DNA of 64,000 nt from NCBI GenBank assembly GCA_934668375.1, contig CAKUNF010000002.1, positions 1-64,000 of the forward strand, read 5' to 3'. This document shows, one piece after another, positions 14,485 through 49,016 of this stretch. Origin of the DNA: an uncultured Parolsenella sp. (GTDB lineage: Bacteria; Actinomycetota; Coriobacteriia; Coriobacteriales; Atopobiaceae). A program made the translations under genes and the position numbers. Numbering within the stretch: the stretch's first letter is position 1; every line of letters begins with the position of its first letter. The notes beneath the pieces were generated by a model. That model ran no database searches. It saw only the letters and a program-made list of their open reading frames with translations, and was not told the DNA's origin.

Positions 14485-14865
14485 CTACAGGTAGGCAACG
14501 GCCTTGATCTCGACCTTGGCGCCCTTGGGCAGCGCGGCGACCTCGAAGGCGGCGCGAGCCGGGTACGGGGCGGCGAAGAACTCGGCGTAGACCTCGTTCA
14601 TGGCGCCGAAGTCGGCGATGGAGTCGAGCAGGACGGTCGTCTCGGCAACGTCGGCCATCGTGGCGCCAGCGGCCTCGAGGACGTTCTTGACGTTCGTAAG
14701 GCTCTGGCGGGTCTGGGAGGCGATGTCCTCGCCAGAGAACTCGCCCGTGGCGGGGTCAACCGGAAGCTGACCGGAGACGTGGATGCAGTTGCCGGCCTTG
14801 GTGGCGGCGGAATAGGGACCAACGGCGGCGGGAGCCTTGTCGGTGACGATTGCCTCAATGGCCAT
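14485..14865 (-). CDS. ridA: RidA family enamine/imine deaminase
   Basis: A 126-residue RidA (YjgF) protein. It hydrolyses 2-aminoacrylate and related enamines released by PLP enzymes. It carries GPYSAATKAGNCIHVSGQLPVD at the start and the substrate-binding Arg in YPARAAFEV (about residue 104), as in active RidA. It lies downstream of the hydantoinase gene in the purine region. That is meaningful because DpaL, encoded in the same region, passes through a 2-aminoacrylate intermediate. Assignment as RidA is firm; its pairing with DpaL is inference. Confidence 0.93.
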   Translation of the reverse strand: MAIEAIVTDKAPAAVGPYSAATKAGNCIHVSGQLPVDPATGEFSGEDIASQTRQSLTNVKNVLEAAGATMADVAETTVLLDSIADFGAMNEVYAEFFAAPYPARAAFEVAALPKGAKVEIKAVAYL

Positions 14866-14907
14866 GTGTTACTCCTTCTCTCGTGCCGCAAGTGCGGCGT
14901 ATCTCGT

Positions 14908-14938
14908 ATGAGACAAGGGGACTGTCCCCTTGTCTCAT
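14908..14938. repeat. REP-like palindrome, family B
   Basis: An almost perfect 31-base palindrome of the form ATGAGACAAGGGGAC / GTCCCCTTGTCTCAT lies between the ridA start and the hydantoinase stop. T-runs lie on its plus-strand side. It may also act as a hairpin that trims or ends the hydantoinase mRNA. Confidence 0.7.
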
Positions 14939-14946
14939 TTTGACGG

Positions 14947-16314
14947 CTAGCGGCTGACGTAGCGGCCGGGCTGGGCGCCCGTGGGCTCGCCGTCGCGGGC
15001 GGCAAGGACGCCGTTCACGAACGTGAGGCGAGCACGACCCTTGGCTTCGAAGCCCTCGTAGGGCGTGTGGTCCACGTTCTGGTGCTGCGTTGCCGCCTGG
15101 ATCATCCAGGAGACGCTCGGGTCCCACACGCAGATGTCGGCATCGGCGCCCTCGGCAAGCCGTCCCTTCTCGGGCCACATGCCAAACACCTTGGCGGGGT
15201 TCTCGCTCATGAGCCGGCACAGGTCCATGGGACCAAGGTCGTCGGCGAACGTGGTTGCGATGAGCGCAGGGCGGTGCTCCACGCCGGCACCGCCATTGGG
15301 CACCTTCCGGAAGTCCTCGGCCCCACGGTCCTTCTGACCATGGATGTTGAAGCTGCAGTGGTCTGTGGCGATGGTGTCGATCTCGCCATTCAGGAGCGCC
15401 TCGCGAAGCGCCGCCCGGTCGGCGGGCTTGCGGGGCGGCGGGCTCATAACGTACGCGAGACCGGCGAGGCCATCCTCTCCCTGCTCGAGGAAGCACGTGT
15501 CGTCGAGCAGCAGGTACTGCGGGCACGTCTCCACGAAGATGTTCTTCTGGCCGCGAGTCTTGGCGGCACGAATCGCCTCGAGGCCGAGCTTCGTGGACAG
15601 ATGAACGACGTTCACTCGAGCGTCTCCGGCGAGATGCGCAAGGTACAGCAGACGGCTGATGGCCTCCGCCTCGCACTCGGCCGGGCGGCTCAGAGGGTGT
15701 CCCTCCGGGCCATGGATGCCCGCGTCGTACACGCGCCGTTGCAGCGCGTCCACGAGCGTGCCGTTCTCGCAGTGAACGCACAGCGTTGCGCCCAGGGGCT
15801 TCAGGGCCTCGAGCAGCTCGAGCGTCTCTGCGTCGTCGAGGCGCAGGTGGTCATAGGCAAAGTAGGACTTGAACGAGCAGACGCCACGCTCGCGCATGAC
15901 CGCGAGGTCGGCACGGTTGCGCTCGTTCCACTCGGCGAGCGCCATGTGGAAGGCGTAGTTGGACGTGCACGTGCCGTCGGCGCGCTTGTGCCACTCGTCG
16001 AGGGCATCCGGCATCGTGACGCCGCGGTCTGCCGTGGCGTAGTCCACGATCGTCGTGGTGCCGCCGCACGCCGCCGCGCGGGTGCCCGTCTCGAAGCTGT
16101 CGGCCGTCCAGTCGATGCCCGTCCAGCACTGCATGTGCGTGTGCGCATCGATGAAGCCAGGAAACACCCAGCACCCACGCGCGTCATAGACCTCGTCTCC
16201 CGCGGCGGGCTCGATGGTGCTCGCGATGCGAGCCACCTTGTCGCCCTCGAGGGCCACGTCTGCGCGGCGCAGACCCTCCGGGCACACGAGCGTGCCACCC
16301 TGGATGATGACCAT
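14947..16314 (-). CDS. hyuA: Dihydropyrimidinase/hydantoinase family cyclic amidohydrolase (HyuA type)
   Basis: A 455-residue amidohydrolase. It has the metal ligands HTH near residues 57-60 (FIDAHTHMQ), the carboxylated Lys in CSFKSYFAY (about 148), His in CVHCEN and VHLS, and the catalytic Asp in IATDHCSFN (about 316). The family hydrolyses cyclic imides and ureides such as dihydropyrimidines and hydantoins. The E. coli homologue lies in the ygeW-ygeX-ygeY purine region, so a ring-opened purine intermediate is the likely substrate here. The ATG at 16314 begins one base after the mocA stop; the longer frame overlaps mocA and is rejected. Confidence 0.88.
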   Translation of the reverse strand: MVIIQGGTLVCPEGLRRADVALEGDKVARIASTIEPAAGDEVYDARGCWVFPGFIDAHTHMQCWTGIDWTADSFETGTRAAACGGTTTIVDYATADRGVTMPDALDEWHKRADGTCTSNYAFHMALAEWNERNRADLAVMRERGVCSFKSYFAYDHLRLDDAETLELLEALKPLGATLCVHCENGTLVDALQRRVYDAGIHGPEGHPLSRPAECEAEAISRLLYLAHLAGDARVNVVHLSTKLGLEAIRAAKTRGQKNIFVETCPQYLLLDDTCFLEQGEDGLAGLAYVMSPPPRKPADRAALREALLNGEIDTIATDHCSFNIHGQKDRGAEDFRKVPNGGAGVEHRPALIATTFADDLGPMDLCRLMSENPAKVFGMWPEKGRLAEGADADICVWDPSVSWMIQAATQHQNVDHTPYEGFEAKGRARLTFVNGVLAARDGEPTGAQPGRYVSR

Positions 16315-16315
16315 C

Positions 16316-17293
16316 TTAGTTACTCCCTCCACGACCAAGACCGCATTCGATAATCTCTTGGCATCGCCCGAGGTCATCGGGCGTGTCGATGTCCCAAAGC
16401 TCCCACGGCCAGGACGCCTCCACGCAGATGGTGCGCACGTCCTCGCCAAGGACGGCAGAGCCTCCGGTGTCTCCCGTCACACTGCTGAGGCGCGAGAAAA
16501 GCTCTCGCGGGAACAGCACGGGAGACGCAGCCCGCCCGCGCCAGGAGAGGCGCACGACCGCGTCGGGGTTTGCGGCTGAGGCGGCCAGCATCGTGCGCAG
16601 GCTTCCCCGCTCGATGAGCGGCTGGTCACCCGGCACGAACAGGCAGGCATCCCACCCGGCGTCGCTCGCATACGAGCACAGCGCGCGCATGGAGTCGCTC
16701 TGCTCGAGCGCGCCCGTCGGGCGCACCACGTCAACGCCGCGACGAGCGCAAATGGCGTCAACCTCGTCCGTGGCACTCGCGACCACCATGGGCACACCGA
16801 GCGGCACGCATCCCAGCGTGCGCTCGAGCACGGGCTCGCCCATAAGCGGCTCCGCGAGCTTGTTGGCACCAAAGCGGCGCGCGTGCCCCGCGGCGAGCAC
16901 TGCCACCCCAGCGCGACGGGCGGCCGCATCGGCCTCGTCGTGCGTCGTGACCGCAACACCAGGGGCAAAGGCCGAGGCAAACTGAGCGCCGGCGCTTGCC
17001 TCACACGCGCTCGTCCAACGCTCGTAGGAGGCCAAAAGCTCGTCCGCCTCAGGCGTGGGCGTGGAGCCGCCTCCGCCCGAACCGCCCACGACGCGCGTCG
17101 TGAGAGGTGACCCCAGGCCAGACTCGGCCTTGCGCACAAGTGCGAGTGCCTTCGTGTAGGCCATCCCCATGGAGATGGCCGCCGCACGAAGGCTCCCGTA
17201 CTCGCGAATGCGGCGAAGCAGCTCGGCAGGACCGGGGCCAAAGACGCGTTCCCCGTCCTCGTCTACCAGATATGTCCTGACGCTTGGTCTCAT
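16316..17293 (-). CDS. mocA: ModE-type HTH fused to molybdenum cofactor cytidylyltransferase (MocA-like)
   Basis: A 325-residue two-domain protein. Residues 1-105 match the ModE DNA-binding domain (LLRRIREYGSLRAAAISMGM, then GGSGGGGSTPTPEADELL). Residues 125-325 match the MobA/MocA nucleotidyltransferase fold (VLAAGHARRFGANKL near the start, FVPGDQPLI with the metal Asp, WDIDTPDDL at the end). MocA adds CMP to molybdopterin to form the cofactor of xanthine dehydrogenases, fitting the two molybdenum hydroxylases in this region (E. coli counterpart YgfJ). The HTH suggests DNA binding as well. GGAG precedes the ATG at 17293. It is followed one base later by the hydantoinase gene. Confidence 0.85.
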   Translation of the reverse strand: MRPSVRTYLVDEDGERVFGPGPAELLRRIREYGSLRAAAISMGMAYTKALALVRKAESGLGSPLTTRVVGGSGGGGSTPTPEADELLASYERWTSACEASAGAQFASAFAPGVAVTTHDEADAAARRAGVAVLAAGHARRFGANKLAEPLMGEPVLERTLGCVPLGVPMVVASATDEVDAICARRGVDVVRPTGALEQSDSMRALCSYASDAGWDACLFVPGDQPLIERGSLRTMLAASAANPDAVVRLSWRGRAASPVLFPRELFSRLSSVTGDTGGSAVLGEDVRTICVEASWPWELWDIDTPDDLGRCQEIIECGLGRGGSN

Positions 17294-17360
17294 GGCTCCA
17301 TTATCCCCAACGTTGGCATCCGGATGCACGGCGTTGTTCCCAAGCGAGAACAAAGCCCGC

Positions 17361-17411: not shown

Positions 17412-18353
17412 CTAGGAGCGAATGGTGGTTCCGGTCTTGCCGTCAATGCCGTCACGCGCCTTCTCGAGCAGCGTGATGAGGGCGGAGCGGCCCGGCTTGC
17501 TCTCGGCGAACGCCGCGGCGGCCAGGACCTTCGGCTCCATGGAGCCCTTGCCGAACTCGCCGGCGTCGGCCAGCTCGTGGGCGCGCTCGGGCGTGAGGGC
17601 GTCGAGCCACTCCTCGTCAGGCTTGCCAAAGCGAACGGCAACCTTCTCCACGGCCGTGAGGATCACGAGGTAGTCCGCATCGAGGGACTCCGCGAGAAGC
17701 TCGGCCGCGAAGTCCTTGTCGATGACGGCCGCGGCGCCCTTGAGGTGGTGGTTGCCCGTGGGCTCGACGGGGATGCCGCCGCCGCCACAGGCGATGACCA
17801 CGTGGTTTGCCGCGACGAGCGAGGAGATCGTGTCGAGCTCGACGATGCGCTTGGGCTTAGGGCTCGCCACGACGCGGCGATAGCCTCGGCCGGAGTCCTC
17901 GACGAAGTCGTAGCCGCGGCTCTCCTTGAGACCCTCGGCCTCCTCCTTGCTCATGAACGAGCCAATGGGCTTCGTGGGGTTCTCGAACGCGGGGTCCGCC
18001 GGGTCGACCTCGACCTGCGTGAGGACGGTGGCGACACCCTTCTCGATGCCGCGGCGCTCCATCTCCTCGCGGAGGGCGTTCTGCAGGTCATAGCCGATGT
18101 AGCCCTGGCTCATGGCACCGCAGACGGACAGCGGGCACGGGATGTACTTCTCGGGGTCGCTGCGCGTCAGCTCGGTCATGGCGTTGGCGATCATGCCAAC
18201 CTGCGGGCCGTTGCCGTGCACGACGACAACCTCGTTTCCCTGCTCGATGAGGTCAACGATGGCCCTAGAGGTCACCTGAACGGCCTGCATCTGCTCGGGA
18301 AGGTTCTTTCCAAGGGCGTTGCCGCCGAGGGCAACGACGATGCGCTTGGACAT
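17412..18353 (-). CDS. arcC: Carbamate kinase
   Basis: A 313-residue ArcC-type kinase. It makes ATP from carbamoyl phosphate and ADP. Motifs are VVALGGNALGKN at the N-terminus, VVVHGNGPQVG, VIACGGGGIPV and the C-terminal GSMEPKVLAA. CGGAG precedes the ATG at 18353. It is placed after ygeW, the carbamoyltransferase that should supply carbamoyl phosphate, as in purine-degrading clusters. The 5' leader (18354-18519) is highly structured. Confidence 0.95.
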   Translation of the reverse strand: MSKRIVVALGGNALGKNLPEQMQAVQVTSRAIVDLIEQGNEVVVVHGNGPQVGMIANAMTELTRSDPEKYIPCPLSVCGAMSQGYIGYDLQNALREEMERRGIEKGVATVLTQVEVDPADPAFENPTKPIGSFMSKEEAEGLKESRGYDFVEDSGRGYRRVVASPKPKRIVELDTISSLVAANHVVIACGGGGIPVEPTGNHHLKGAAAVIDKDFAAELLAESLDADYLVILTAVEKVAVRFGKPDEEWLDALTPERAHELADAGEFGKGSMEPKVLAAAAFAESKPGRSALITLLEKARDGIDGKTGTTIRS

Positions 18354-18391
18354 GGGGGCTCCGATCAAAAAAGTGTAAGAGGTATGGTTCT

Positions 18392-18435
18392 CACTCGGCC
18401 ACCCCATAAAAGGGGGGAAGCAGGGCGGCCGAGTG
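18392..18435. other. Long hairpin in the arcC leader
   Basis: CACTCGGCC (18392-18400) pairs with GGCCGAGTG (18427-18435), with an inner CCCC/GGGG pairing. On the minus strand an alternative weak stem (GTGAGA with TCTTAC) overlaps its end and is followed by six T residues shortly before the arcC ribosome site, an arrangement like an attenuator. On the plus strand the hairpin precedes a strong terminator. Confidence 0.4.
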
Positions 18436-18448
18436 GGTTCCAACTAGC

Positions 18449-18519: not shown

Positions 18520-19719
18520 TTAGGCCTGATACCAGCGGGGGGTGCCGGCGTCCTCGAGCGCCTTGAGCGTGGCGACGGGATCGGCAACCTTCTGGAGGAA
18601 CATCATTGCGGCGATGGCGTAGGGCTTGTAGGAGGCCTCCTTGTACATGCCGTCGCGGTGCATGTCGAAGACGTCGGCCATGACCTCGCCATGCTCGCAG
18701 GAGACGCCGGAGATGTCGGCGGGCAGCGGGTGCATGAAGATCGTGTCCTGGCCGTTGGCCGTCTTGGCCATGAGGTCGGTCGTGGAGCACCAGTCCTGGT
18801 GCGTGGCGTTCTGGGCGAGAAGCTCCTTCTCGAGCGCGGCGATGCCGGCGTCGTCACCCTCGGCGTAGAGGTTGGTGCGCTTCTCCATGGCCGCGTACGG
18901 AGCCCAGGACTTCGGGATCACGATGTCGGCGCCCTCGAAGGCCTCGGCCATCGTGTTGACCTGCTTGAACGAGGTGCCGTTCTCGGCGGCATAGCCCTTT
19001 GCGCGCTCGACGACCTCGGGCATGAGGTCGTAGCCCTCGGGGTGGGCCAGGGTGACGTCCATGCCAAAGCGCGGCAGCAGGCTGATGAGCGACTGCGGGC
19101 AGGACAGGGGCTTGCCGTAGGAGGGCGAGTAGGCCCAGGTCACGGCAACCTTCTTGCCCTTGAGGTTCTCGAGGCCGCCGAACTCCTCGATGAGGTAGAG
19201 CATGTCGGCAGAGGACTGCGTGGGGTGATCGGAGTCGGACTGCAGGGAGATGAGCGTGGGACGGTGGTCGAGCACGCCGTCGGCGTAGGCCTGCTGGACG
19301 GACTCGGAGACCTCGGCCATGTAGGCGTCGCCCTTGCCGATGTACATGTCGTCGCGGATGCCGATGACGTCAGCCATGAAGGAGATCATCGTGGCGGTCT
19401 CGCGAACGGTCTCGCCGTGGGCGATCTGGGACTTCTTCTCGTCCAGGTCCTGGAGCTCGAGGCCGAGGAGGTTGGAGGCCTTGGAGAAGGAGAAGCGGGT
19501 GCGCGTAGAGTTGTCGCGGAACAGCGAGACAGCGAGGCCCGAGTCGAAGATCTTGGAGGAGATGTTGCGCTCGCGCAGGTTGCGCAGGGCGGCGGCGGTG
19601 GCGTAGAGGGCGCGCAGCTCGTCGGTGGTCTTGTCCCAGGTGTGCAGGAAGTCGCTGTTGTACATGCCCTTGAAGTCAAGGCCAGACAGGACGTCGAGGT
19701 ACTGCTGGATATCGCTCAT
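18520..19719 (-). CDS. ygeW: Knotted carbamoyltransferase YgeW
   Basis: A 399-residue member of the aspartate/ornithine carbamoyltransferase family. The carbamoyl phosphate loop STRTR (FRDNSTRTRFSF, about residue 70), HPTQ (DHPTQSSADM, about 165) and HPLPAD (about 328) are all intact. It is longer than ornithine transcarbamylase and matches the YgeW subfamily. The natural acceptor is unsettled; in purine-degradation clusters it is thought to release carbamoyl phosphate for carbamate kinase. GGGGAGAGG precedes the ATG. Upstream gene ygeY ends 120 bases away, with a hairpin between. Confidence 0.93.
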   Translation of the reverse strand: MSDIQQYLDVLSGLDFKGMYNSDFLHTWDKTTDELRALYATAAALRNLRERNISSKIFDSGLAVSLFRDNSTRTRFSFSKASNLLGLELQDLDEKKSQIAHGETVRETATMISFMADVIGIRDDMYIGKGDAYMAEVSESVQQAYADGVLDHRPTLISLQSDSDHPTQSSADMLYLIEEFGGLENLKGKKVAVTWAYSPSYGKPLSCPQSLISLLPRFGMDVTLAHPEGYDLMPEVVERAKGYAAENGTSFKQVNTMAEAFEGADIVIPKSWAPYAAMEKRTNLYAEGDDAGIAALEKELLAQNATHQDWCSTTDLMAKTANGQDTIFMHPLPADISGVSCEHGEVMADVFDMHRDGMYKEASYKPYAIAAMMFLQKVADPVATLKALEDAGTPRWYQA

Positions 19720-25120: not shown

Positions 25121-25615
25121 CTACTTGTCGGAGCCGCACTCGCCGTGGACGATCTCGATGGCCTTCTCGACGCCGTCGATGACGTTCTGGTAGCCGGTGC
25201 AGCGGCACAGGTGGCCGGAGAGGTTCTTGCGAATCTCATCACGCGTGTAGGTCTTGCCGGTGTTGATCATCTCCATGGCGCTCATGATGATGCCGGGGAT
25301 GCAGAAGCCGCACTGCACGGCAAACTGGTCAATAAACGCCTGCTGAACGGGGTTGAGCGTGCCGTCCGGAGCCTGCAGACCCTCCACGGTGAGGATATCC
25401 TTGCCCTGGGCCCAGTCGGTGAGGTAGAGGCAGGTGTCCGTTGCCACGCCATCGATGAGGACGGTGCAGGCACCACACTCGCCCACCTCGCAGCCACGTT
25501 TGACGCTCGTGAGGCCAAGGCGGTTGCGCAGCGTGTCAAGCAGAGACTCGCGCGGGTCGTAGCCCACCTGGACCTCCTTGCCGTTCACCGTGCACTTCAA
25601 GATCTTCATGTCCAT
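25121..25615 (-). CDS. xdhC: Xanthine dehydrogenase-type 2Fe-2S subunit
   Basis: A 164-residue iron-sulfur subunit of a molybdenum hydroxylase. The plant-type cluster is bound by GCEVGECGACTV plus a Cys near residue 63, and the second cluster by CGFC and CRC (QCGFCIPG and HLCRCTGY). It passes electrons from the molybdenum subunit to the FAD subunit. The ATG at 25615 shares its A with the TGA of the FAD-subunit gene; a GTG one codon earlier is equally possible. It is the last gene of the xdhA-xdhB-xdhC unit. Confidence 0.92.
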   Translation of the reverse strand: MDMKILKCTVNGKEVQVGYDPRESLLDTLRNRLGLTSVKRGCEVGECGACTVLIDGVATDTCLYLTDWAQGKDILTVEGLQAPDGTLNPVQQAFIDQFAVQCGFCIPGIIMSAMEMINTGKTYTRDEIRKNLSGHLCRCTGYQNVIDGVEKAIEIVHGECGSDK

Positions 25616-35662: not shown

Positions 35663-35681
35663 GGTGGGGCGGGAACAGAAA

Positions 35682-35711
35682 CAGGGGCCCGGACTTGTGT
35701 CCAGGCCCCTG
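35682..35711 (-). terminator. Terminator after xdhD
   Basis: CAGGGGCC-GGAC and GTCC-GGCCCCTG form a long stem with a short loop; the minus strand continues TTTCTGTTCC. It lies 26 bases past the xdhD stop. Confidence 0.75.
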
Positions 35712-35736
35712 CGAGATGCCGCGTGGGTGTCAGCCG

Positions 35737-38526: not shown

Positions 38527-39042
38527 CTACCCCTCTGCCACGATGCCGAACGCATCGCGGATGACGTTTCTCGGACACTTCGTGGCGCACATGCCGCAGG
38601 AGATGCAGCGCGCCCAGTCGATGACGGCGTGGTTGTCGATCACGTGGATGGCACCGGCCGGGCAGGCGCGCTCGCACGCGCCGCAGGCCACGCAGCTGTT
38701 GTCGCACTCGAGCTTGGCGTCTGAGCCCTTCTCGGTGTTGGAACAGCGCGCCGTGATGGTGAACTCGCGCTCAACGAGTTGGATGACGCCTTGCTCGCAT
38801 GAGCGCGCGCACAGGCCACAGCCAATGCAGGCGTCGCGGTCCACCACGGCCACGCCACGCTCGTTGATATGGATGGCGTTCTTGCGGCACACGCCCACGC
38901 ATGTGGCGCAGCCGATGCAGCCCTGCTTGCAGCCTTGCAGGTCGCAGCCACCGTTGCACATGACGACGGCGACGGGCCGGGGCTTTCTCGGACGCTTGGC
39001 CGCAGGTCTCGCGGGCTTGTCCTTGTTGTTGTCGTAGGCCAT
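38527..39042 (-). CDS. Polyferredoxin with 4Fe-4S clusters (RnfB-like)
   Basis: A 171-residue electron carrier. After a basic N-terminus, CNGGCDLQGCKQGCIGC resembles RnfB-type cluster loops. Two or three further CxxCxxCxxxC motifs follow (CIGCGLCARSC, CVACGACERAC, CISCGMCATKC), giving roughly four clusters. The ATG at 39042 follows AAAGG. It sits between ygfK and xdhD, so it is the natural electron link between them. E. coli has similar ferredoxin genes (ygfS, ygfT region) in its purine cluster. Confidence 0.88.
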   Translation of the reverse strand: MAYDNNKDKPARPAAKRPRKPRPVAVVMCNGGCDLQGCKQGCIGCATCVGVCRKNAIHINERGVAVVDRDACIGCGLCARSCEQGVIQLVEREFTITARCSNTEKGSDAKLECDNSCVACGACERACPAGAIHVIDNHAVIDWARCISCGMCATKCPRNVIRDAFGIVAEG

Positions 39043-39183: not shown

Positions 39184-42171
39184 CTACTTGGCGAGCAGAT
39201 AGGCGTAGGAGTCACGCACGGTGCGAATCGTGAGGCGCACGTCCTCGGGAAGGCCGCAGTTGGGGTCGTCGACGTCATAGGCACCCGTGCCAGAGGCGAG
39301 GCGGACGATAAACGAGCCATCGGCCTGGGGCAGGAAGCCGCGGTTCTCGGAGGCGCCCATGTCCTCGGCGCTCCAGAACAGGGTGAGCTTGTCCTTGAAC
39401 GGACGGCCCTCCCACGGGCAGAACACGGCGCAGTTACCACACTCGTTGCACATGCCGTCCACGTGGATGACCTGGTGCTGGGCCAGGCCCGCAACGTCGA
39501 TGGCGACGTTGGCTCGGTTGGGGCAGACGTCGCAGCACGCCTCGCAGACCTTGGCGCAGCCCAGGCAGCGGCTGTGCGCGAGCAGGGCGGTCTCGGTGGA
39601 GAGGGTGCCCTTGCGCTCGTAGCACTGCTCGACCGTCGCGGCGGCATTGGCCTCGGCATAGGCGTTGAAGTCGGCGCCGAGCATGTCACGGGCAACGGCC
39701 TGGGCGTCGGCGATGGCCTCGACGAACGTCGCGGGGCCACGACGGCAGTCGCCGGCGGCCCAGACGCCCGCCACGCCCGTGGCGGTGCCTGCCGGGCGAC
39801 CCTTGCGGTCCACCTCGACGCCGGCGGAGGCGTAGACGTCACCCTCGATGTGCTCGCCCACGGCGCAGATGACGGCAGTGGCCGGGACCTCGACGGTCTG
39901 ACCGGTGGCGACGGGACGCTGACGGCCGGACTCGTCGGCCTCGCCGAGCCTCATGACGTCGCAGGTGAGCTTGCCGTCTGCCACGCCCTTGGGCGCGAGA
40001 AGCTCGCAGAACTCGACGCCGTCGGCCAGGGCCTCCTGGAGCTCGTCCTCGTCAGCAGGCATGAAGCGCTTCGTGCGGCGGTAGACGATGCGGACGTTCT
40101 CGACGCCCGGGAGGCGCTTGGCGACGCGCGCGGCGTCCATGGCCGTGTTGCCGGCGCCCACGATGACGATGTCGGTGCCGAGCGCGGAGAGGTCCTCGCC
40201 GGCCTTGGCGGCACGCAGGAAGTCGAGGACGTCGTGCTCCTCGCCGTACTCGAGGCCCACGTGGCCCGGTGCCCAGGCGCCCACGCAGACCACGACGTCC
40301 GTGTAGCCCTCGGCCTTGAGCTCCTCGATGCTTCTGACCTCGCGCCCCAGCTCGACCTTGGCGCCAAAGGCGAGGCAGAGCTGCTCGTCGGCGTCGATGT
40401 CGTTGTGGGAGATGCGGAACTCGGGGATGACGTGACGGGCGACGCCACCGAGCCTGTCCGTGCGCTCGATGATCGTGACGTCGGCGCCGGCGCGCGTGAG
40501 GAAGAACGCGGTGGCGAGGCCGGCCGGACCGCCGCCGACGACGGCGACGCGCTTGTCGGAGCCATGCGCGGGCTTGGTGTCCTTGAGCTCGGCCAGGACC
40601 TCGTCGAAGCCACCGCGGGCGGCCTTGAGCTTGCTGGCACGGATCTGGGCACCCTCGGCCTCGTAGAACGCGCGCTCGCACTTGGCGCCGCAGGGGTGCG
40701 GGCAGAGGTTGCCCGTGATGTGGGGCAGCGCGTTGCGGCTCACGATGATGCGCAGGGCCTCGGCGAGGTTGCCCTCGTCAACGGCGTGCAGGTAGGCGGG
40801 GATGTCCTGCTGGATGGGGCAGCCGGAGCGGCACGGGGCCGTGAAGCAGCTCGTGAGCGGCAGCGGGGCGCTCACCTTGTGCGGCTTGGCCGGCTTGATG
40901 GGCTTGTGGTACAGCGGGCTTGCCGTGGCCCTCTCGCCCAGGGCGGTAACTGCCGCGACGTCGACGTCCTCGCGACGCTCCATGCCCTCGAGGATGTGCG
41001 CGATCTGGCTGAAGCGCTCGTAGCCGCCGGGCTTGAGCACCGTCGTGGCCATCGTGATGGGCCAGATGCCTGCGGCATACAGGTCGTGGATGTTGCGAGC
41101 ATCGGCGCCGCCGGAGTAGCTGATGCGCAGCTTGCCGTCGAACTCGGCGGAGATGCGGCGCGCCACCTCGACCGTGAGCGGGAACAGCGAGCGGCCGGAC
41201 ATGTACATCTCCTCGCTCGGCAGCTCGCCGCGCGTGACGTCCACGGGGAAGGTGTTCGTGAGCTTCACGCCAAAGGCAAGGCCATGGCTCGCGGCAAGGT
41301 CGATGAGGCGACGCATCATCGGCACGGCGTCTTCCCACTGCAGGTCCTCGACGAAGTGCTTGTCGTCAAAGGCGATGTAGTCAAAGCCGAGCTCGTTCAG
41401 GCGCGTGCGTGCGTAGTCATAGCCGAGCAGCGTGGGGTTGCACTTGATGTAGGTGTTGAGGCCCTTCTCGACAATGAGGTAAGTGGCGATGCGCTCAATC
41501 TCTGCGGGCGGGCAGCCGTGCAGCGTGGACTCGGTGACCGAGGTGGAGACGTGCGGGCTCACGGAGTTCACGAACTCGGCGTCGACGCGCTCGAAGCGGT
41601 CGAGGTTGGCAAGTGCCCAGTCGCGGCACTCGGCCCACACTGCGGTGTTGCTCGCGTCCTTCATGGACTCGATGTAGTTGTCGACCTTGGCGCTCTTGAT
41701 GCCCTCGAGGTCATAGCCCACGCTCATGTTGAAGACGAAGCCGTCCGCGTCCCCCAGCCCCAGCTCGCGGGACAGCAGCTTGCAGGCCCACCAGGCCTTC
41801 ACGTACTCGTTGAGCGCCTGCGGAACCTCGAGCTCGGTGGACCACTCGCAGTTGTAGCACTCATCCTCGGCCACGATGCAGGGCTTGTTGACGCACGCGG
41901 AAAGCTCGGCGCCGTCCATGACCTGCACGGTCTTGACCTCGAAGAAGCGAGATCCCGCCACGTAGGACGCAACGATGTTCTGCGCGAGCTGGCTGTTGGG
42001 ACCGGCGGCCGGGCCAAACGGCGACTCGATCTTCTCGTTGAAGATGGGGTCGGCGCCACCCTCGTGGCGCACGATCTTGCGCACGCCGAAGACGCTGCCG
42101 AGGTTGGCGTGCTCGGTGAGGATCCAGTCCATCATCTGTGCGAACGGGATCGGCCTCATGATGTCGCTCAT
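39184..42171 (-). CDS. ygfK: YgfK family putative reductase (selenate reductase subunit-like)
   Basis: A 995-residue iron-sulfur flavoprotein. Residues 1-440 form a dihydroorotate-dehydrogenase-like barrel (SPFGPAAGPNSQLAQNI). Residues 445-535 are the Fer4_20 domain (CRSGCPIQQDIPAYLHA, CPHPCGAKCERAF). Residues 535-830 are a GltD-like FAD/NAD(P)H domain (VAVVGGGPAGLATAF; VIVGAGNTAMDAARVAKR). Residues 865-930 carry Cys clusters CLGCAKVCEACCDVCP and CNECGNCAVFCP. The parts are those of dihydropyrimidine dehydrogenase in a different order, so reduction of a purine or pyrimidine-like ring is plausible. The old name, selenate reductase subunit, reflects an E. coli phenotype. The ATG at 42171 follows GAGAGGAG. 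Confidence 0.92.
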   Translation of the reverse strand: MSDIMRPIPFAQMMDWILTEHANLGSVFGVRKIVRHEGGADPIFNEKIESPFGPAAGPNSQLAQNIVASYVAGSRFFEVKTVQVMDGAELSACVNKPCIVAEDECYNCEWSTELEVPQALNEYVKAWWACKLLSRELGLGDADGFVFNMSVGYDLEGIKSAKVDNYIESMKDASNTAVWAECRDWALANLDRFERVDAEFVNSVSPHVSTSVTESTLHGCPPAEIERIATYLIVEKGLNTYIKCNPTLLGYDYARTRLNELGFDYIAFDDKHFVEDLQWEDAVPMMRRLIDLAASHGLAFGVKLTNTFPVDVTRGELPSEEMYMSGRSLFPLTVEVARRISAEFDGKLRISYSGGADARNIHDLYAAGIWPITMATTVLKPGGYERFSQIAHILEGMERREDVDVAAVTALGERATASPLYHKPIKPAKPHKVSAPLPLTSCFTAPCRSGCPIQQDIPAYLHAVDEGNLAEALRIIVSRNALPHITGNLCPHPCGAKCERAFYEAEGAQIRASKLKAARGGFDEVLAELKDTKPAHGSDKRVAVVGGGPAGLATAFFLTRAGADVTIIERTDRLGGVARHVIPEFRISHNDIDADEQLCLAFGAKVELGREVRSIEELKAEGYTDVVVCVGAWAPGHVGLEYGEEHDVLDFLRAAKAGEDLSALGTDIVIVGAGNTAMDAARVAKRLPGVENVRIVYRRTKRFMPADEDELQEALADGVEFCELLAPKGVADGKLTCDVMRLGEADESGRQRPVATGQTVEVPATAVICAVGEHIEGDVYASAGVEVDRKGRPAGTATGVAGVWAAGDCRRGPATFVEAIADAQAVARDMLGADFNAYAEANAAATVEQCYERKGTLSTETALLAHSRCLGCAKVCEACCDVCPNRANVAIDVAGLAQHQVIHVDGMCNECGNCAVFCPWEGRPFKDKLTLFWSAEDMGASENRGFLPQADGSFIVRLASGTGAYDVDDPNCGLPEDVRLTIRTVRDSYAYLLAK

Positions 42172-42343
42172 GTCTGAGCTCCTCTCCTGCCCCGTCGAGA
42201 CCGCGCGACGAGGGCGAGATGTGTTACGCGCAGGGCAGGGCGCCCCGTGCGCGACGGCCCCGCGGAGGCCGTCTGCCACGCCCGCGCTCCCCGGCGCGAA
42301 CGTGGGTGCGGCGCCGCCGGGCGCGAGTCCCGGCACCGCCTAC

Positions 42344-42368: not shown

Positions 42369-43724
42369 CTAGTACGTGCGGTGGTTCAGCGTGCCCCACA
42401 GCTTCTTGGACTGCTCGAGCGTCCAGGCGTTGATGCGCTCCTCGTCAAAGGCCACGAACTCGCGGTCCTTGTACAGGACCTTGCCGTTCACGATCGTGGT
42501 GCGGCAGTTCTTGCCCATCATGCCAAAGAGCATGTGGCCGTCGATGTTGTCGCCGGAGAAGGGCGTGAACACCGGGTAGTCCATCACGATGACGTCTGCG
42601 GCGGCGCCGGGGGCGAGCTTGCCGAACGTGCGACCGAAGTACTTGGAGGCCATCGCGTAGTTGTTCTTGAACAGCATCGTCATGGCCTCGCCCCAGCCCA
42701 CGTTGGGCATGGCGGCGTTGTGGCGCTGGATGACGAGGAAGACCTTGAGGCTCTCGAGCATGTCGTGGGTGTAGGCGTCCGTGCCCATGCACACCGGGAT
42801 GCCGCGGCGCATGAACTCGAGCACGGGGGCGCAGCCCACGGCGTTGCCCATGTTGGACTCGGGGTTGTTGACGAGCCAGGTGCCGGAGTCCTTGATGATG
42901 TCCATCTCGGCGGGCGTCACGTGGATGCAGTGGCCGAGCATCGTGTCGGGCCCGAGCAGGTTATGCTGCAGCAGGCGCTCGACGGGTGGGATGCCGCCGC
43001 GGTTCTTTCGGGAGTCCCAGACGTCGTTCATGCCCTCGCAGACGTGGATGTGGAAGCCCGTGAGACCGTCGTTGGCCTCGGCCATCTTGTCCATCGTCTC
43101 GTCGGAGAGCGTGAAGGTGGCGTGCCCGCCGAACATGGCGGCGATCATCGTGTCGTCGTCCTTCTCGCGCGCGTCGTGGGCCCAGCGGGCGAACTCGGCG
43201 TTCTCGTTGATTGCCTGGTCGCACTTCTCCTGGCCGCGGCGGTCGGAGACCTCGTAGCACAGGCAGGAGCGCATGCCGAGCTCCTTGGCGACGTCCTTGA
43301 TGGCAAAGAGCGAGCCGGGAATCTCGCAGAAGCTCGCGTGATGGTCAAAGATCGTGGTGACGCCGTCGCGCAGCGAGTCGAGGATCGTGGCGTAGGCGCT
43401 GGCGCGCGTGCCGTCGAGCGTGAGGTTGTCGTCGATCTTCCACCACTGCTGCTCGAGGTTCTCGAGGAAGTTCGTGGGGTTGCAGCCGTCGATGGCAAGG
43501 CCGCGCGCGAGGCCCGAGTAGATGTGCGTGTGGCAGTTCACGAGTCCCGGCATGATGACGCCGCCGTGGGCGTCCACGTACTCGTAGCCGGGGTTTGCGG
43601 CCTTGAGCTCGGCCTCGTCGCCTATGGCAACGATGGTGTCACCGTCGATGGCAACCGCGCCGTGCTCGAGGTAGGGCTTCTCGTCATCGCGGGTGATGAC
43701 GCGACCATTACCGACAATAAGCAT
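42369..43724 (-). CDS. ssnA: SsnA family aminohydrolase
   Basis: A 451-residue member of the amidohydrolase superfamily (chlorohydrolase/deaminase type). Metal ligands are HTH (LVNCHTHIYSG, about residue 62), His in HIHVCEG, His in LGHCIHV and the Asp in GTDAYTHDM. SsnA is always linked with YgfK and the selenium-type hydroxylases and is needed for purine breakdown in gut bacteria; the bond it hydrolyses is not established by sequence. GAAGGGAG precedes the ATG. It lies upstream of ygfK and is probably cotranscribed with it. Confidence 0.9.
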   Translation of the reverse strand: MLIVGNGRVITRDDEKPYLEHGAVAIDGDTIVAIGDEAELKAANPGYEYVDAHGGVIMPGLVNCHTHIYSGLARGLAIDGCNPTNFLENLEQQWWKIDDNLTLDGTRASAYATILDSLRDGVTTIFDHHASFCEIPGSLFAIKDVAKELGMRSCLCYEVSDRRGQEKCDQAINENAEFARWAHDAREKDDDTMIAAMFGGHATFTLSDETMDKMAEANDGLTGFHIHVCEGMNDVWDSRKNRGGIPPVERLLQHNLLGPDTMLGHCIHVTPAEMDIIKDSGTWLVNNPESNMGNAVGCAPVLEFMRRGIPVCMGTDAYTHDMLESLKVFLVIQRHNAAMPNVGWGEAMTMLFKNNYAMASKYFGRTFGKLAPGAAADVIVMDYPVFTPFSGDNIDGHMLFGMMGKNCRTTIVNGKVLYKDREFVAFDEERINAWTLEQSKKLWGTLNHRTY

Positions 43725-44175: not shown

Positions 44176-44176
44176 G

Positions 44177-45552: not shown

Positions 45553-46929
45553 TTAGATAAGCACGTACTTAAGGACGAACACAACCGCCAGCACGTACAT
45601 CATGGGGCTGATCTTGTCGTGCTTGCCGCACAAAAGGTTGATGCCCACGTAGGAGATGACGCCAAGGGAGATGCCCTCGACGATGCTGTAGCAGAACGGC
45701 ATGCCCACGAAGCACAGGAACGCGGGGATGGACTCGGTGGGGTCGTCGAAGTTGACGCTCAGCACGGAGCTGGCCATGAGCGAGCCCACGATGACGAGGG
45801 CGGGCGCCGTGGCAAACGACGGGATGGCGAGGAAGATCGGCGAGAGGAACATTGAGAGCAGGAACAGCACGCCCGTCGTGAGGGCCATGAGGCCCGTGCG
45901 GCCGCCCTCGGCGATGCCCGCGGCGCACTCGACCGAGCAGCACGTCGCGGAGTTGCCCAGGACGCCGGCGATCATCGTGGCCACGGACTCGGCCCCCATC
46001 GCCTTGCCCACGCCGGGCATGTTGCCCTCGTCGTCCAGCAGCTTCGCCTTGGCGCCCAGGCCGATGAGCGAGCCCACGGTGTCGAACATGCTCGTGAGCA
46101 AAAAGGCAAAGGACACCACGAGAAAGCCCAGGTCAGCGACGTGCGAGAAGTCCATCTTCATGAATGTGGGCGCAAGTGAGGGAACGGCGAGGCCGTTTGA
46201 GAAGTCCGGAAGCAGGCTCGCATAGCCGGCGGCGGCATCGGGCACGTACAGGCCGCAGAGCTCGCAGGCGATGCCGAGCAGCCAGGTGACGAGGATGCCG
46301 AGCAGGATATTGCCCTTGACGTTTCTGGCCATGAGCACGCCGGTGACGACGAGGCCGACGCAGAACAGCACGACGCTGATGCCCGCCGTGTTGAACGTGC
46401 CGTCTGCCATGCTTCCCGAGAACGAGAAGACCGAGACGAGCGTGGAGCTGCTGCTCACGACAAGACCGGAGTTCTTGAGGCCGATGATCGTGATGAACAG
46501 GCCGATGCCCGCCGAGATGGCGTACTTGAGGTTCAGGGGTATCGCGTTGAAGATCTTGTCGCGCAGGCTCGTGAGCGAGATGAGCGCGAACACGACGCCC
46601 TCGACGAAGATCGCGGCGAGCGCGACCTCCCAGGAATAGCCCATGCCCAGCACCACGGTGTAGGCAAAGTAGGCGTTGAGGCCCATGCTGGGCACGAGCA
46701 CGAACGGGTAGTTGGTGAGCAGCGCCATGACGAGCGTGCCGAGAAAGCACACGAGCGCCGTGGCCGTGAAGACGGCGCCCGAGTCCATGCCCGTGGCGCT
46801 CATGACCGAGGGGTTGACGGCGAGCACGTAGGCCGCCGTGACGAACGTGGTGAGGCCGGCGAGCACCTCGGTCCTCACCGTGGTGCCGCGCTCCTTGAGG
46901 TGGAACAGCCTGTCGAGCTTCTCTTCCAT
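45553..46929 (-). CDS. AzgA/PbuG-type guanine-hypoxanthine permease
   Basis: A 458-residue membrane protein with about 12-14 helices, of the AzgA branch of nucleobase-cation symporters. Family motifs are GLTTFVTAAYVLAVNPSVMS near the N-terminus, PSMGLNAYFAYTV, and the substrate region TSMFDTVGSLIGLG, then NSATCCSVECAAGIAEGGRTG. The ATG at 46929 follows GGGAG. It is upstream of guaD on the same strand and likely imports guanine or hypoxanthine. It belongs to a different family from the permease at 22902. Confidence 0.93.
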   Translation of the reverse strand: MEEKLDRLFHLKERGTTVRTEVLAGLTTFVTAAYVLAVNPSVMSATGMDSGAVFTATALVCFLGTLVMALLTNYPFVLVPSMGLNAYFAYTVVLGMGYSWEVALAAIFVEGVVFALISLTSLRDKIFNAIPLNLKYAISAGIGLFITIIGLKNSGLVVSSSSTLVSVFSFSGSMADGTFNTAGISVVLFCVGLVVTGVLMARNVKGNILLGILVTWLLGIACELCGLYVPDAAAGYASLLPDFSNGLAVPSLAPTFMKMDFSHVADLGFLVVSFAFLLTSMFDTVGSLIGLGAKAKLLDDEGNMPGVGKAMGAESVATMIAGVLGNSATCCSVECAAGIAEGGRTGLMALTTGVLFLLSMFLSPIFLAIPSFATAPALVIVGSLMASSVLSVNFDDPTESIPAFLCFVGMPFCYSIVEGISLGVISYVGINLLCGKHDKISPMMYVLAVVFVLKYVLI

Positions 46930-47499
46930 GGGAATCTCCCTAAAGACCGCTGCGGGCCCGGTAGCCCGCATGCCGACGCGAGCAAATTCGCTCGCTTCCC
47001 GTCGCGGACGGGCCGCGACGCTCAGCCCCGGCACCGCGAGCGCACCCCACCGTACGAATGGACGTGACGCCCCCTGTGCGTGCCGTTGGTCACGGCCCGG
47101 CGCCGCATCCCTCGCGAAAGGGCGGTCCGGGCCGCATCGGGTTAACTCGATTATTAATTATTACTATCGCGTGATAATAATTTCTTGTTGTAGACGGTAG
47201 CTTTTGCGTCGCGAACGGCGGAATGGCCCCAAAAGTACCCCGCTAGCTGGAGCGTTGTAGTTCTCGACGCAATACGCGGCGGTGGCCCGCATTGGCAAGA
47301 ACGAGAGGACCGCAAGACGGCGGGCGGCAAGTCCATTTGTACAAAACGAGCTCAGAATGTCGCGAATTCTCGGCGTTCCTCGGACCAGCTAAACCGAAAC
47401 CAGCGATTTTGCCGCGTCACAAGTACACATGGCGAAAAAAACGACCATTTGAGCCCGAATAGTACATCCGGGTCGAAGACCCCCGGCCGCCTTCGGCTC
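46930..47499. other. Long intergenic region upstream of the AzgA-type permease
   Basis: A 570-base gap without a gene. An AT-rich island at 47148-47190 is the likely promoter of the permease-guaD unit; within it ATTATTA (47157-47163) and TAATAAT (47175-47181) flank TATCGCGTGATA, a dyad that could be an operator. The remaining sequence shows no RNA gene. Confidence 0.4.
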
Positions 47500-48192
47500 C
47501 TACCCCTGGCGACGGACCTGCTGCAGATAGCGATACACGCTCGGCACGGAGACGTGCAGCTCGCTGGCCACGTCTGCCGCGGCGCCCTTGATGAGGAAGG
47601 TGCCCGCCGCCTCGAGCCTGCGAATGATGTCGATGCGGCCGGCCTGGTCGAGCTCGCTCGACGTCTTGCCCAGCGCCCCGAGAAGCGAGCGAACCTGCTC
47701 GGCCACGCCCGTCTCGGCACCGCCGATGGAGAGCGTCTCGACGCTCGAGGCGCGGTAGGCGGCCCGCACGGCCTCGAGGTTCGTGTCACGGAACTCCTCG
47801 GAGCCGCCGTGGCGGTATGCCTCCATGAACGCCTTGATTCCGTCCTCGAGCGTACGGAACGGCTGCGGGTCGATGTTGACGCACAGGATGCCCACGATCT
47901 TGGCACCGTCGCGGATGAAGTACGACGAGCTCTGCAGCGGCCTGCCGTCGACCGTCGTGGAGACGTAGTCGCTCACGAAGCAGTCCTCGGAGCGCTCGAG
48001 CTGCTCGGCCATCTTGAGCGAGAACGCCGTGGCGGGCGCCCCCACCGCACGCCCCGAGACGTGCCCGTTCACGATCTTCACGATGGAGCGGGAGGGGTCG
48101 GTGAGGTCATGGAGGGCGACCTCGGTCGAGGACCCGAGCGCGGCGCCCAGGAAGTCCACGAACGGGACGAACGCGGCAACCTTCTCGTTCAT
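47500..48192 (-). CDS. YheO/DauR-like PAS-HTH transcriptional regulator (copy 1)
   Basis: A 230-residue regulator. The N-terminal YheO-like PAS domain contains EVALHDLTDPSRSIVKIVNGHVSGR and SSYFIRDGAKIVGILCVNID; the C-terminal HTH_22 domain contains VASELHVSVPSVYRYLQQVR. DauR and YheO members sense small amino acid or nitrogen compounds. It is divergent from a paralogue at 48360 and ends the purine region, so control of purine genes is a reasonable guess. GAGAGGAAGAGG precedes the ATG. Confidence 0.88.
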   Translation of the reverse strand: MNEKVAAFVPFVDFLGAALGSSTEVALHDLTDPSRSIVKIVNGHVSGRAVGAPATAFSLKMAEQLERSEDCFVSDYVSTTVDGRPLQSSSYFIRDGAKIVGILCVNIDPQPFRTLEDGIKAFMEAYRHGGSEEFRDTNLEAVRAAYRASSVETLSIGGAETGVAEQVRSLLGALGKTSSELDQAGRIDIIRRLEAAGTFLIKGAAADVASELHVSVPSVYRYLQQVRRQG

Positions 48193-48260
48193 GTGCGGGT
48201 CCTCTTCCTCTCGACTGGCTTCCCGAATGGCTCACTCGTTAGATTATATATTGTAGAAAA

Positions 48261-48277
48261 ACCATACTTTGTGTTAG
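48261..48277. promoter_or_regulatory. Motif shared with the dpaL promoter
   Basis: ACCATACTTTGTGTTAG lies between the two divergent regulator genes. It differs at only two positions from ACCACACTTTGTTTTAG at 22585-22601 in the dpaL promoter. A TATAAT-like -10 for the minus-strand regulator is at about 48243-48250, so the motif overlaps its -35 region. Confidence 0.5.
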
Positions 48278-48359
48278 TTTTTGCAGGTAGAACCGATTGT
48301 ACTCGACGCGCCTTCCCACAGGGTTCACAGCGCGCTCCGAGAATCGCGAAAGGCCGCAC

Positions 48360-49016
48360 ATGGACGCCGCCCAGACTGACTTCTACGCTCGACTCGCTCA
48401 TGCCATCGCCGTGCAGTTTGGCTCAAACTGCGAGGTCGTCGTGCACGACCTCGAGACCGAGGACCCCGAGCGCTCCATCGTGGCCATCGAGAACGGGCAC
48501 GTCACCGGCCGCTCCGTGGGAGACGGACCGAGCCACATCGTGCTCGACGCCGTGAAGGCCGGCAAGGTCCACAAGCTCTCCGACCGCCTCGCCTACCTCA
48601 CGAAAACCGCCGACGGCCGCATCCTGCGCTCGTCGACCGTCTTCATTCGCAACGAGGACAACGTGCCCGTGGGCATCCTGGGCATCAACTACGACATCAC
48701 GGTGCTCGCCGCCGCCGCCGACACCCTGAACGGCATGACAGGCACGGGTCCGAACGACGACCCCACCGGCGACCCCGAGCCCATCGTCCGCAGCGTGGCC
48801 GACCTGCTCGACGACCTCATCGAGCAGAGCGTGGCGCTCGTGGGCAAGCCCGCGGCCCTCATGAGCAAGGACGAGCGCGTTCGCGCCATCCGCTACCTCA
48901 ACGACGCGGGCGCGTTTCTCATCACGAAGTCCGGCCCCAAGGTCTGCAAGTACTTCGGCATCTCCAAGTACACGCTCTACAGCTACCTGGACGAGGCCAA
49001 GAGCGATCAGGACTAG
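48360..49016 (+). CDS. YheO/DauR-like PAS-HTH transcriptional regulator (copy 2)
   Basis: A 218-residue paralogue of copy 1, with the same order: PAS-like domain (EVVVHDLETEDPERSIVAIE, then TVFIRNEDNVPVGILGINYD) and a C-terminal HTH (CKYFGISKYTLYSYLDEAKS). The segment FLITKSGPKVCKYFGIS matches YheO-type recognition helices. The start at 48360 follows GAAAGG; an earlier in-frame ATG lacks a ribosome site. Copies 1 and 2 share a 167-base promoter region. Confidence 0.88.
   Translation: MDAAQTDFYARLAHAIAVQFGSNCEVVVHDLETEDPERSIVAIENGHVTGRSVGDGPSHIVLDAVKAGKVHKLSDRLAYLTKTADGRILRSSTVFIRNEDNVPVGILGINYDITVLAAAADTLNGMTGTGPNDDPTGDPEPIVRSVADLLDDLIEQSVALVGKPAALMSKDERVRAIRYLNDAGAFLITKSGPKVCKYFGISKYTLYSYLDEAKSDQD

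What the first reader, a model, noticed from the sequence alone, without database searches (positions are those of the whole stretch)
14485..49016. A nearly complete uricase-independent purine/urate degradation region of about 34 kb
The window shows, together, ygeX/dpaL, ygeY, ygeW, arcC, hyuA, ygfK, ssnA, two molybdenum hydroxylases (xdhABC and xdhD), mocA, guaD, two unrelated purine permeases, a BMP-ABC nucleoside importer, ridA and two YheO-like regulators. Homologues of this set are established parts of anaerobic purine breakdown in gut bacteria. The combination with a complete nucleoside importer and guaD in one block suggests a self-contained salvage-to-energy island. The order of steps is inference.
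Basis: partly seen in the sequence, partly recalled or inferred. Interest (0 to 1): 0.75.

Follow-up and report, generated by a model that had tools for sequence, protein, structure and literature searches.

The report
Urate-breakdown gene block with its ferredoxin
This 34-kb stretch of a gut Coriobacteriia genome carries the recently described oxygen-free pathway that turns urate and other purines into pyruvate and ammonia, and next to the enzyme that starts it lies a small iron-sulphur protein that may be its missing electron donor.

Summary
It is a Coriobacteriia version of the reductive urate pathway published in 2025 (PMC12507026); E. coli MG1655 has a comparable 33-kb island, so the composition is known. 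"Self-contained" is too strong: in relatives, nucleoside phosphorylase and PFOR lie elsewhere.

A [4Fe-4S] gene adjoins xdhAC in 55 of 76 loci with ygfK upstream (33 of 49 after collapsing near-copies) and in 0 of 36 without. One lineage fuses it to XdhAC. In 64 of 80 XdhAC-bearing Coriobacteriia genomes a relative lies 27-91 nt upstream of xdhAC.

I propose it is the dedicated electron carrier of the urate-reducing step, whose physiological donor is named as open in print (PMC12990295). The link is comparative, confounded by phylogeny, and untested biochemically.

The parts
14485..14865 (-). ridA, enamine/imine deaminase (probably for the 2-aminoacrylate released by YgeX; inference)
   Evidence: TIGR00004 158.8 bits
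14947..16449 (-). hyuA, hydantoinase; true start probably near 16311
   Evidence: TIGR02033 487.6 bits from residue 47
16316..17353 (-). ModE-type winged helix fused to MocA (molybdenum cofactor cytidylyltransferase)
   Evidence: TIGR03310 and TIGR00637 matches, both below cut-off; PF12804; same fusion in 6 of 13 MocA ORFs seen, window included
17412..18443 (-). arcC/yqeA, carbamate kinase
   Evidence: TIGR00746 over cut-off; 63% to E. coli YqeA
18520..19719 (-). ygeW, carbamoyltransferase
   Evidence: TIGR03316 714.5 bits
19840..21225 (-). ygeY, M20-type hydrolase
   Evidence: NF009555 617.9 bits
21292..22539 (-). ygeX/dpaL, 2,3-diaminopropionate ammonia-lyase
   Evidence: TIGR03528 609.7 bits
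22902..24389 (-). ncs2a, UacT/XanQ-like purine permease
   Evidence: TIGR00801 309 bits, over cut-off; nearest E. coli UacT 28%
25121..25618 (-). xdhC, [2Fe-2S] subunit
   Evidence: NF043084 over cut-off
25615..26496 (-). xdhB, FAD subunit
   Evidence: NF043083 over cut-off
26497..28839 (-). xdhA, molybdenum subunit of xanthine dehydrogenase
   Evidence: NF043082 1091.7 bits
29104..30207 (-). bmp1, BMP/PnrA-type substrate-binding lipoprotein
   Evidence: PF02608 114 bits
30324..31439 (-). bmp2, BMP/PnrA-type substrate-binding lipoprotein (62-66% to bmp1)
   Evidence: PF02608 110 bits
31591..32523 (-). ABC permease 1
   Evidence: NF047928 184 bits, below cut-off
32523..33635 (-). ABC permease 2
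   Evidence: NF047929 188 bits, below cut-off
33649..35169 (-). ABC ATPase of the BMP importer
   Evidence: NF047930 431 bits, below cut-off
35681..35712 (-). terminator-like hairpin directly after xdhAC (14 pairs), suggesting ssnA-ygfK-fdx-xdhAC is one transcription unit
   Evidence: pattern scan; 14 such patterns in the region against 7.8 (sd 3.4) in shuffles, so weak on its own
35737..38514 (-). xdhAC, FAD-less fused [2Fe-2S]/molybdenum hydroxylase, proposed urate reductase
   Evidence: TIGR03311 1149 bits; domains
38527..39042 (-). fdx, 171-aa RnfB-like polyferredoxin with four [4Fe-4S] motifs; proposed electron carrier of XdhAC
   Evidence: Fer4 families; RnfB 9eri_B E 1.6e-29; start set by comparison with G099 and G139
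39184..42180 (-). ygfK, flavin/Fe-S yanthine reductase (ORF open to 42336)
   Evidence: TIGR03315 1274 bits from residue 57 of the ORF
42369..43724 (-). ssnA, aminohydrolase
   Evidence: NF005540 620 bits
44177..45532 (-). guaD-like guanine deaminase
   Evidence: TIGR02967 335.6 bits, cut-off 375.4
45553..47034 (-). ncs2b, GhxQ-like purine permease
   Evidence: PF00860 139.8 bits; 34% to E. coli GhxQ
47500..48192 (-). YheO-like regulator 1 (PAS_6 + HTH_22)
   Evidence: Pfam
48297..49016 (+). YheO-like regulator 2, divergent; a divergent YheO-like gene lies within 5 kb upstream of ygfK in 36 of 56 loci with that much flank
   Evidence: Pfam

Best explanation
The block encodes the reductive urate pathway of anaerobic bacteria plus feeder steps. 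Guanine is deaminated (GuaD) to xanthine and oxidised by XdhABC to urate. Urate is reductively dehydroxylated by XdhAC to 2,8-dioxopurine (yanthine); YgfK reduces and dearomatises it; SsnA, HyuA, YgeW/ArcC, YgeY and YgeX take it to pyruvate and ammonia with an ATP from carbamoyl phosphate, and RidA clears 2-aminoacrylate. These steps are published for homologues (the RidA role is my inference) and carried over here by homology. The new part: XdhAC of this type has no FAD subunit, and the RnfB-like polyferredoxin encoded between ygfK and xdhAC is its dedicated electron carrier, docking through its C-terminal dicluster on the [2Fe-2S] side of XdhAC. It draws electrons either from YgfK's NAD(P)H-reducible flavin/Fe-S chain or from the cell's ferredoxin pool (PFOR). 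Which of the two, the docking and the direction are inferred.
For: Family matches. Same gene order in G099 and G139. A [4Fe-4S] ORF with at least two motifs adjoins xdhAC, same strand, in 55 of 76 loci (window included) with ygfK just upstream: 50 on the 5' side, 4 on the 3' side, 1 fused in frame; 33 of 49 after collapsing near-copies. In the 80 ygfK loci (1.44 Mb) all 39 such ORFs other than ygfK lie at xdhAC, none elsewhere. In 292 Coriobacteriia genomes the 42 strongest relatives of the protein all lie just upstream of xdhAC; 64 of 80 XdhAC genomes have it there. Fusion in L068, with a protein cluster of 5 member sequences of that form. Among 59 relatives picked by similarity the eight C-terminal dicluster cysteines are invariant, while 20 have lost the N-terminal clusters. 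No FAD-subunit gene adjoins any of the ygfK-linked xdhAC tested, against 5 of 36 xdhAC without ygfK. Nearest fold of the XdhAC part is the FAD-less Desulfovibrio aldehyde oxidoreductase, which passes electrons to a separate carrier, flavodoxin (passages of PMC6274584). RnfC is over cut-off in only 1 of 12 relatives, so the protein is not an Rnf subunit in most.
Against: 21 of 76 ygfK-xdhAC loci have no such gene, so it is not indispensable at the locus; of 80 XdhAC genomes 16 lack an adjacent hit at 1e-15. The restriction to ygfK-linked xdhAC follows XdhAC phylogeny: only 3 independent contrasts, sign-test median p 0.5. Flanks searched for xdhAC without ygfK were short (mostly 0.9-1.5 kb up, about 1 kb down). 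No YgfK-ferredoxin fusion was found. The structure job could not test docking: no relative aligned to the ferredoxin part, which has pLDDT below 50. The E. coli XdhD Glu606 proposed to orient urate aligns with a gap in every XdhAC compared, and XdhAC is slightly closer to E. coli XdhA (31%) than to XdhD (26%), so urate-to-yanthine specificity is carried over from clostridial XdhAC work that I could read only in a commentary.
Confidence: 0.65

Rival explanations
1. The block is the known pathway and the ferredoxin is an accessory of YgfK rather than of XdhAC, for example delivering electrons to yanthine reduction.
For: It lies between ygfK and xdhAC in 50 of 76 loci (in some Clostridia loci another gene also lies between) and was seen only where ygfK is next to xdhAC.
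Against: In 4 loci it lies on the far side of xdhAC, in 1 it is fused to XdhAC. None with two motifs lies next to ygfK in the 22 ygfK loci without an adjacent xdhAC (15 of them with at least 2.8 kb downstream); one, L009, has a ferredoxin match cut off by its contig end. YgfK of E. coli works with NAD(P)H (PMC12507026).
Confidence: 0.15
2. XdhAC runs oxidatively in this host (xanthine or hypoxanthine to urate) and hands electrons to the ferredoxin, so the ferredoxin is an acceptor.
For: TIGR03311 is named selenium-dependent xanthine dehydrogenase; molybdenum hydroxylases can run both ways (recalled).
Against: A second, FAD-containing xanthine dehydrogenase (XdhABC) is in the same block; XdhAC of C. 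sporogenes is reported to reduce urate with an artificial donor (PMC12990295, read in full).
Confidence: 0.12
3. The ferredoxin gene is a passenger or an iron store with no part in electron transfer to XdhAC.
For: One paper reports a shared Fer4 gene in urate clusters of three species and calls it iron storage (passages of PMC12542679).
Against: Position is kept within 27-91 nt of xdhAC in 64 of 80 genomes; the C-terminal cluster cysteines are invariant in 59 of 59 relatives compared; a natural fusion exists.
Confidence: 0.05

Closest known systems
Reductive uric acid degradation gene cluster of E. coli (ygeW-ygfK-ssnA-ygfM-xdhD; PMC12507026)
   Same: Same enzyme set, with xdhABC, guaD, UacT/XanQ- and GhxQ-type permeases in one island of similar length.
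   Different: E. coli uses XdhD with FAD subunit YgfM and NADH; here a TIGR03311 XdhAC without FAD subunit and a polyferredoxin. BMP-ABC importer and YheO-like regulators instead of sigma-54 YgeV; YqeB/YqeC, YgfS and YgfT counterparts were not found among the window ORFs searched.
Clostridial variant (C. sporogenes XdhAC; C. difficile XdhD-UacX-UacY)
   Same: FAD-less urate reductase; Li et al. already suggest reduced ferredoxin as donor for the C. difficile enzymes (PMC12507026).
   Different: Here YgfK, YgeW and ArcC are present instead of the C. difficile UacX and UacY, and the carrier has its own gene beside xdhAC.
4-hydroxybenzoyl-CoA reductase (Thauera)
   Same: Xanthine-oxidase-family enzyme run as a reductive dehydroxylase with ferredoxin as donor (passages of PMC12771579); XdhAC matches its alpha and gamma chains (1rm6).
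   Different: Has a FAD subunit (recalled) and an additional [4Fe-4S] cluster (seen only in a cited title); different substrate; no fused ferredoxin that I know of.
Desulfovibrio aldehyde oxidoreductase (MOP)
   Same: Nearest solved fold to XdhAC; FAD-less single chain passing electrons through a separate carrier.
   Different: Oxidative enzyme, flavodoxin partner.
RnfB polyferredoxin
   Same: Closest solved relative of the fdx protein by sequence (9eri_B, 1.6e-29).
   Different: RnfC over cut-off in only 1 of 12 relatives; 171 aa against 274-333 aa for the two RnfB chains matched.

Membership tests
Reductive urate degradation cluster | YgfK or UacX next to SsnA | tested here: met
Reductive urate degradation cluster | HyuA, YgeW (or UacY), YgeY and YgeX | tested here: met
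Reductive urate degradation cluster | XdhA/XdhD-type molybdenum enzyme (PF01315) in the cluster | tested here: met
Reductive urate degradation cluster | Urate consumed, yanthine formed | not testable with these tools
   needs culture or enzyme assay
E. coli-type XdhD-YgfM urate reductase | YgfM-type FAD subunit beside xdhD | tested here: not met
   xdhAC of the window is flanked by fdx and the ABC ATPase gene; no FAD-subunit gene adjoins any ygfK-linked xdhAC tested
E. coli-type XdhD-YgfM urate reductase | Glu606 proposed for urate orientation | tested here: not met
   aligns with a gap in all XdhAC rows; alignment across about 26% identity, so weak
TIGR03311 selenium-dependent xanthine dehydrogenase | score over curated cut-off | tested here: met
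   1149.4 against 830.45 bits
TIGR03311 selenium-dependent xanthine dehydrogenase | genome has SelD and YqeB (selenium cofactor trait) | tested here: inconclusive
   own genome not held; SelD in 12 of 12 and YqeB in 9 of 9 relatives, YqeB in 16 of 19 in an earlier set
Rnf complex subunit B | genome encodes Rnf (RnfC) | tested here: inconclusive
   over cut-off in 1 of 12 relatives, not over it in the two nearest; own genome not held

The most novel reading that the evidence does not exclude
YgfK, the polyferredoxin and XdhAC form one enzyme complex that carries out both reductions of urate. YgfK's flavin module, whose best sequence matches among solved proteins include NfnA and NfnI, the latter from a bifurcating family as I recall, splits NAD(P)H electron pairs: one electron goes through the polyferredoxin to the low-potential urate reduction on XdhAC, the other to yanthine reduction. 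The same module also resembles glutamate synthase and dihydropyrimidine dehydrogenase, which do not bifurcate as far as I recall.
Probability: 0.1. Interest if true: 0.8.

Novelty: new variant of a known kind. Interest (0 to 1): 0.5.

Why it matters
Gut bacterial urate breakdown can lower host urate, and an engineered E. coli carrying the pathway has been tested in mice (PMC12507026). The first enzyme of the non-E. coli type was assayed with an artificial donor, and its physiological donor and possible accessory protein are named as open (PMC12990295). A conserved, in one lineage fused, ferredoxin gene beside xdhAC gives a concrete candidate that can be tested by adding one small protein to an assay, and that may be needed to make the Coriobacteriia or Lachnospiraceae version work in another host.

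Tried and rejected
YgfK-ferredoxin natural fusions: one search of the large protein collection, none at E 1e-10 among 154 candidates. A second fusion hit (P0003) proved to be an HdrA-like protein, unrelated. Structure job on the natural fusion: XdhAC part confident (pTM 0.86), ferredoxin part unmodelled because my alignment left it at depth 1; docking not tested, and the second job was not used. E. coli YgfS as a counterpart of fdx: 27% over a motif-rich stretch, not convincing. Promoter scan: no more sites than in shuffles. Rfam at gathering scores and tRNA scan: nothing. BMP ligand by nearest solved structure: too distant to say (bmp2 only). The idea that restriction to ygfK-linked loci is independent evidence: not upheld on the tree. 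Literature: in an open-access library only. The Nature Microbiology 2025, Cell 2023 and Cell Host Microbe 2023 papers are not held, so I cannot say the idea is absent from print. A ferredoxin donor is suggested in general terms in PMC12507026, and a Fer4 gene is noted in PMC12542679.


Full report
What is there. The window is 65.5% G+C and comes from a member of the class Coriobacteriia. Its YgfK is closest, among named genomes, to Olsenella, Thermophilibacter and related Atopobiaceae at up to 78%; in the XdhAC tree, after near-copies were removed, its nearest row is Collinsella aerofaciens at 81%, so the family is not settled. The window's own genome is not held. The block genes from 14485 to 48192 run on the minus strand except ORF 24406-25032 (+). 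Family searches put ridA, hyuA, arcC, ygeW, ygeY, ygeX, xdhC, xdhB, xdhA, ygfK, ssnA and a TIGR03311 molybdenum hydroxylase over curated cut-offs; guaD and mocA are recognisable but under theirs. A BMP-type ABC importer with two binding proteins, two NCS2-type permeases and two PAS_6/HTH_22 (YheO-like) regulators complete the block.

Is it more than chance? The same order of block genes occurs in G099 and G139, with the same serC, cold-shock and further neighbours where fetched. Only ncs2b differs (a 59-aa remnant in G099, no hit in G139). In seven further Coriobacteriia genomes with at least 37 kb fetched, subsets of the same modules are present in varying order; counting G099 and G139, the BMP importer follows xdhAC in 6 of 9 (two genomes with shorter stretches, G109 and G187, not counted). 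Among 40 loci with about 10 kb on both sides of ygfK, 3 hold a BMP gene, 6 guaD and 11 xdhA plus FAD subunit.

What the pathway is. I read main-text parts 1-4 of 7 of PMC12507026 and the whole of PMC12990295. They describe urate reduction to 2,8-dioxopurine (yanthine) by XdhD or XdhAC, reductive dearomatisation by YgfK, ring opening by SsnA and HyuA, removal of the two ureido groups by YgeW and YgeY, and pyruvate release by YgeX. E. coli MG1655 has a comparable island, 3000345-3032815. Bookkeeping shows that xanthine or guanine to acetate, 3 CO2 and ammonia needs no external electrons, whereas urate needs two. That would explain why xdhABC and guaD sit beside a four-electron reductive pathway (inference).

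Where "self-contained" fails. In relatives the nucleoside phosphorylase-like gene (9 of 9, 4 over cut-off) and PFOR (12 of 12, 11 over cut-off) lie outside the block. SelD (12 of 12) and YqeB (9 of 9) are far away in G099 and G139 but within about 14-30 kb of xdhAC in G202 and G288. None of the four was found among the window ORFs searched.

The overlooked gene. The ORF 38527-39183 lies between ygfK and xdhAC. Comparison with G099 and G139 places its start at 39042, giving 171 aa. It has four CxxCxxCxxxC motifs and is closest by sequence, among solved proteins, to RnfB (9eri_B, E 1.6e-29). XdhAC itself carries the [2Fe-2S] and molybdenum domains but no FAD domain; its nearest solved fold is the FAD-less Desulfovibrio aldehyde oxidoreductase. 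E. coli XdhD works with FAD subunit YgfM and NADH (PMC12507026).

Association tests. (a) holds 113 rows: 111 XdhAC loci, the window and E. coli XdhD, after leaving out 13 repeat loci, L081, L154, L155 and rows under 750 aa. With ygfK just upstream: 76 (window included), of which 55 have a [4Fe-4S] ORF at xdhAC (50 5', 4 3', 1 fused) and 21 none. Without ygfK: 36, of which 0. Near-copies remain in these numbers; collapsed at 93% identity they are 33 of 49 and 0 of 33. (b) In the 80 ygfK loci, 1,436,044 bases, 39 ORFs other than ygfK have two or more such motifs; 39 of 39 lie at xdhAC. (c) Of 22 ygfK loci without adjacent xdhAC, 0 have such an ORF near ygfK; 15 have at least 2.8 kb downstream, and L009 has a ferredoxin match cut off by its contig end. 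(d) Class-wide, 80 of 296 genomes have XdhAC over cut-off; a search of 292 genomes with the protein puts a relative 27-91 nt upstream of the aligned start of xdhAC in 64 of these 80. Three have their hit elsewhere (one, G232, has xdhAC at a contig start) and 13 none at 1e-15; one of the 13, G001, has a two-cluster form there by motif. The two samples differ slightly, so a few of the 13 may not have been searched. The 42 strongest hits of the whole search are all at xdhAC; the others are two-cluster forms or, mostly, frames of about 270-430 aa that look like RnfB. (e) The tree of 83 XdhAC shows 10 changes of ferredoxin state and 3 of ygfK linkage; the association gives only 3 independent contrasts, median p 0.5. 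So (a) is strong on position but not independent of ancestry. (f) L068, a Lachnospiraceae MAG, fuses a two-cluster ferredoxin to the XdhAC N-terminus; the protein collection holds a cluster of 5 member sequences of this form. (g) In 59 relatives, picked by similarity, the C-terminal dicluster averages 63% identity to the window with all eight cysteines invariant; the N-terminal half is aligned in 39.

Mechanism proposed. Electrons enter the ferredoxin's N-terminal clusters, pass to the C-terminal dicluster, then to the [2Fe-2S] clusters of XdhAC and the molybdenum centre, where urate loses its 6-oxygen. Shown: gene order, family membership, fusion. Inferred: docking, direction, donor. The closest working precedent is 4-hydroxybenzoyl-CoA reductase, a xanthine-oxidase-family dehydroxylase that takes electrons from ferredoxin (passages of PMC12771579). 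In the 21 of 76 loci without the gene another carrier must do the job, or YgfK itself.

Prior art. PMC12507026 suggests ferredoxin as donor for the C. difficile enzymes without naming a gene in the parts I read. PMC12542679 notes a shared Fer4 gene in the urate clusters of three species and calls it iron storage (passages). PMC11448449 (passages) reports that growth on xanthine and urate depends on selD and yqeB in C. difficile, in line with a selenium-dependent enzyme. Three key papers could not be read.

Verdict. Observation confirmed; interpretation partly supported; pathway already known; the dedicated polyferredoxin is a variant feature that makes a stated open question testable.

Noticed in passing
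window 16316-17353 (-): ModE-type winged-helix domain fused to MocA; seen in 6 of 13 MocA ORFs, all six in Coriobacteriia. It may let the cofactor enzyme regulate its own operon.
   Followed up: partly
window 24406-25032 (+): ORF without Pfam or NCBIfam match, opposite to the block, conserved at 90-91% in G099 and G139.
   Followed up: partly
window 45553-47034 (-): GhxQ-like permease gene is a 59-aa remnant in G099 and gave no hit in G139, so recently gained or lost.
   Followed up: partly
L025, L031, L035, L040, L042, L044, L052, L056, L078: In these Clostridia loci about 0.8 kb lies between ygfK and fdx or xdhAC; where I read it in full (L025, L040, L056) it is a protein I recognise by eye as YqeB-like.
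   Followed up: partly
G035:C65, G038:C12, G060:C4, G132:C8, G171:C51, G232:C44: A second, more distant molybdenum hydroxylase frame in these Coriobacteriia genomes carries one in-frame stop each: decay, recoding or assembly error.
   Followed up: no
window 4405-7377: PdxR-like MocR regulator divergent from pdxS-pdxT, a PLP synthesis pair near the PLP-dependent ygeX block.
   Followed up: no
window 29104-31439: Two tandem BMP binding proteins, 62-66% identical, with a terminator-like hairpin between them: perhaps two ligand specificities sharing one permease.
   Followed up: no
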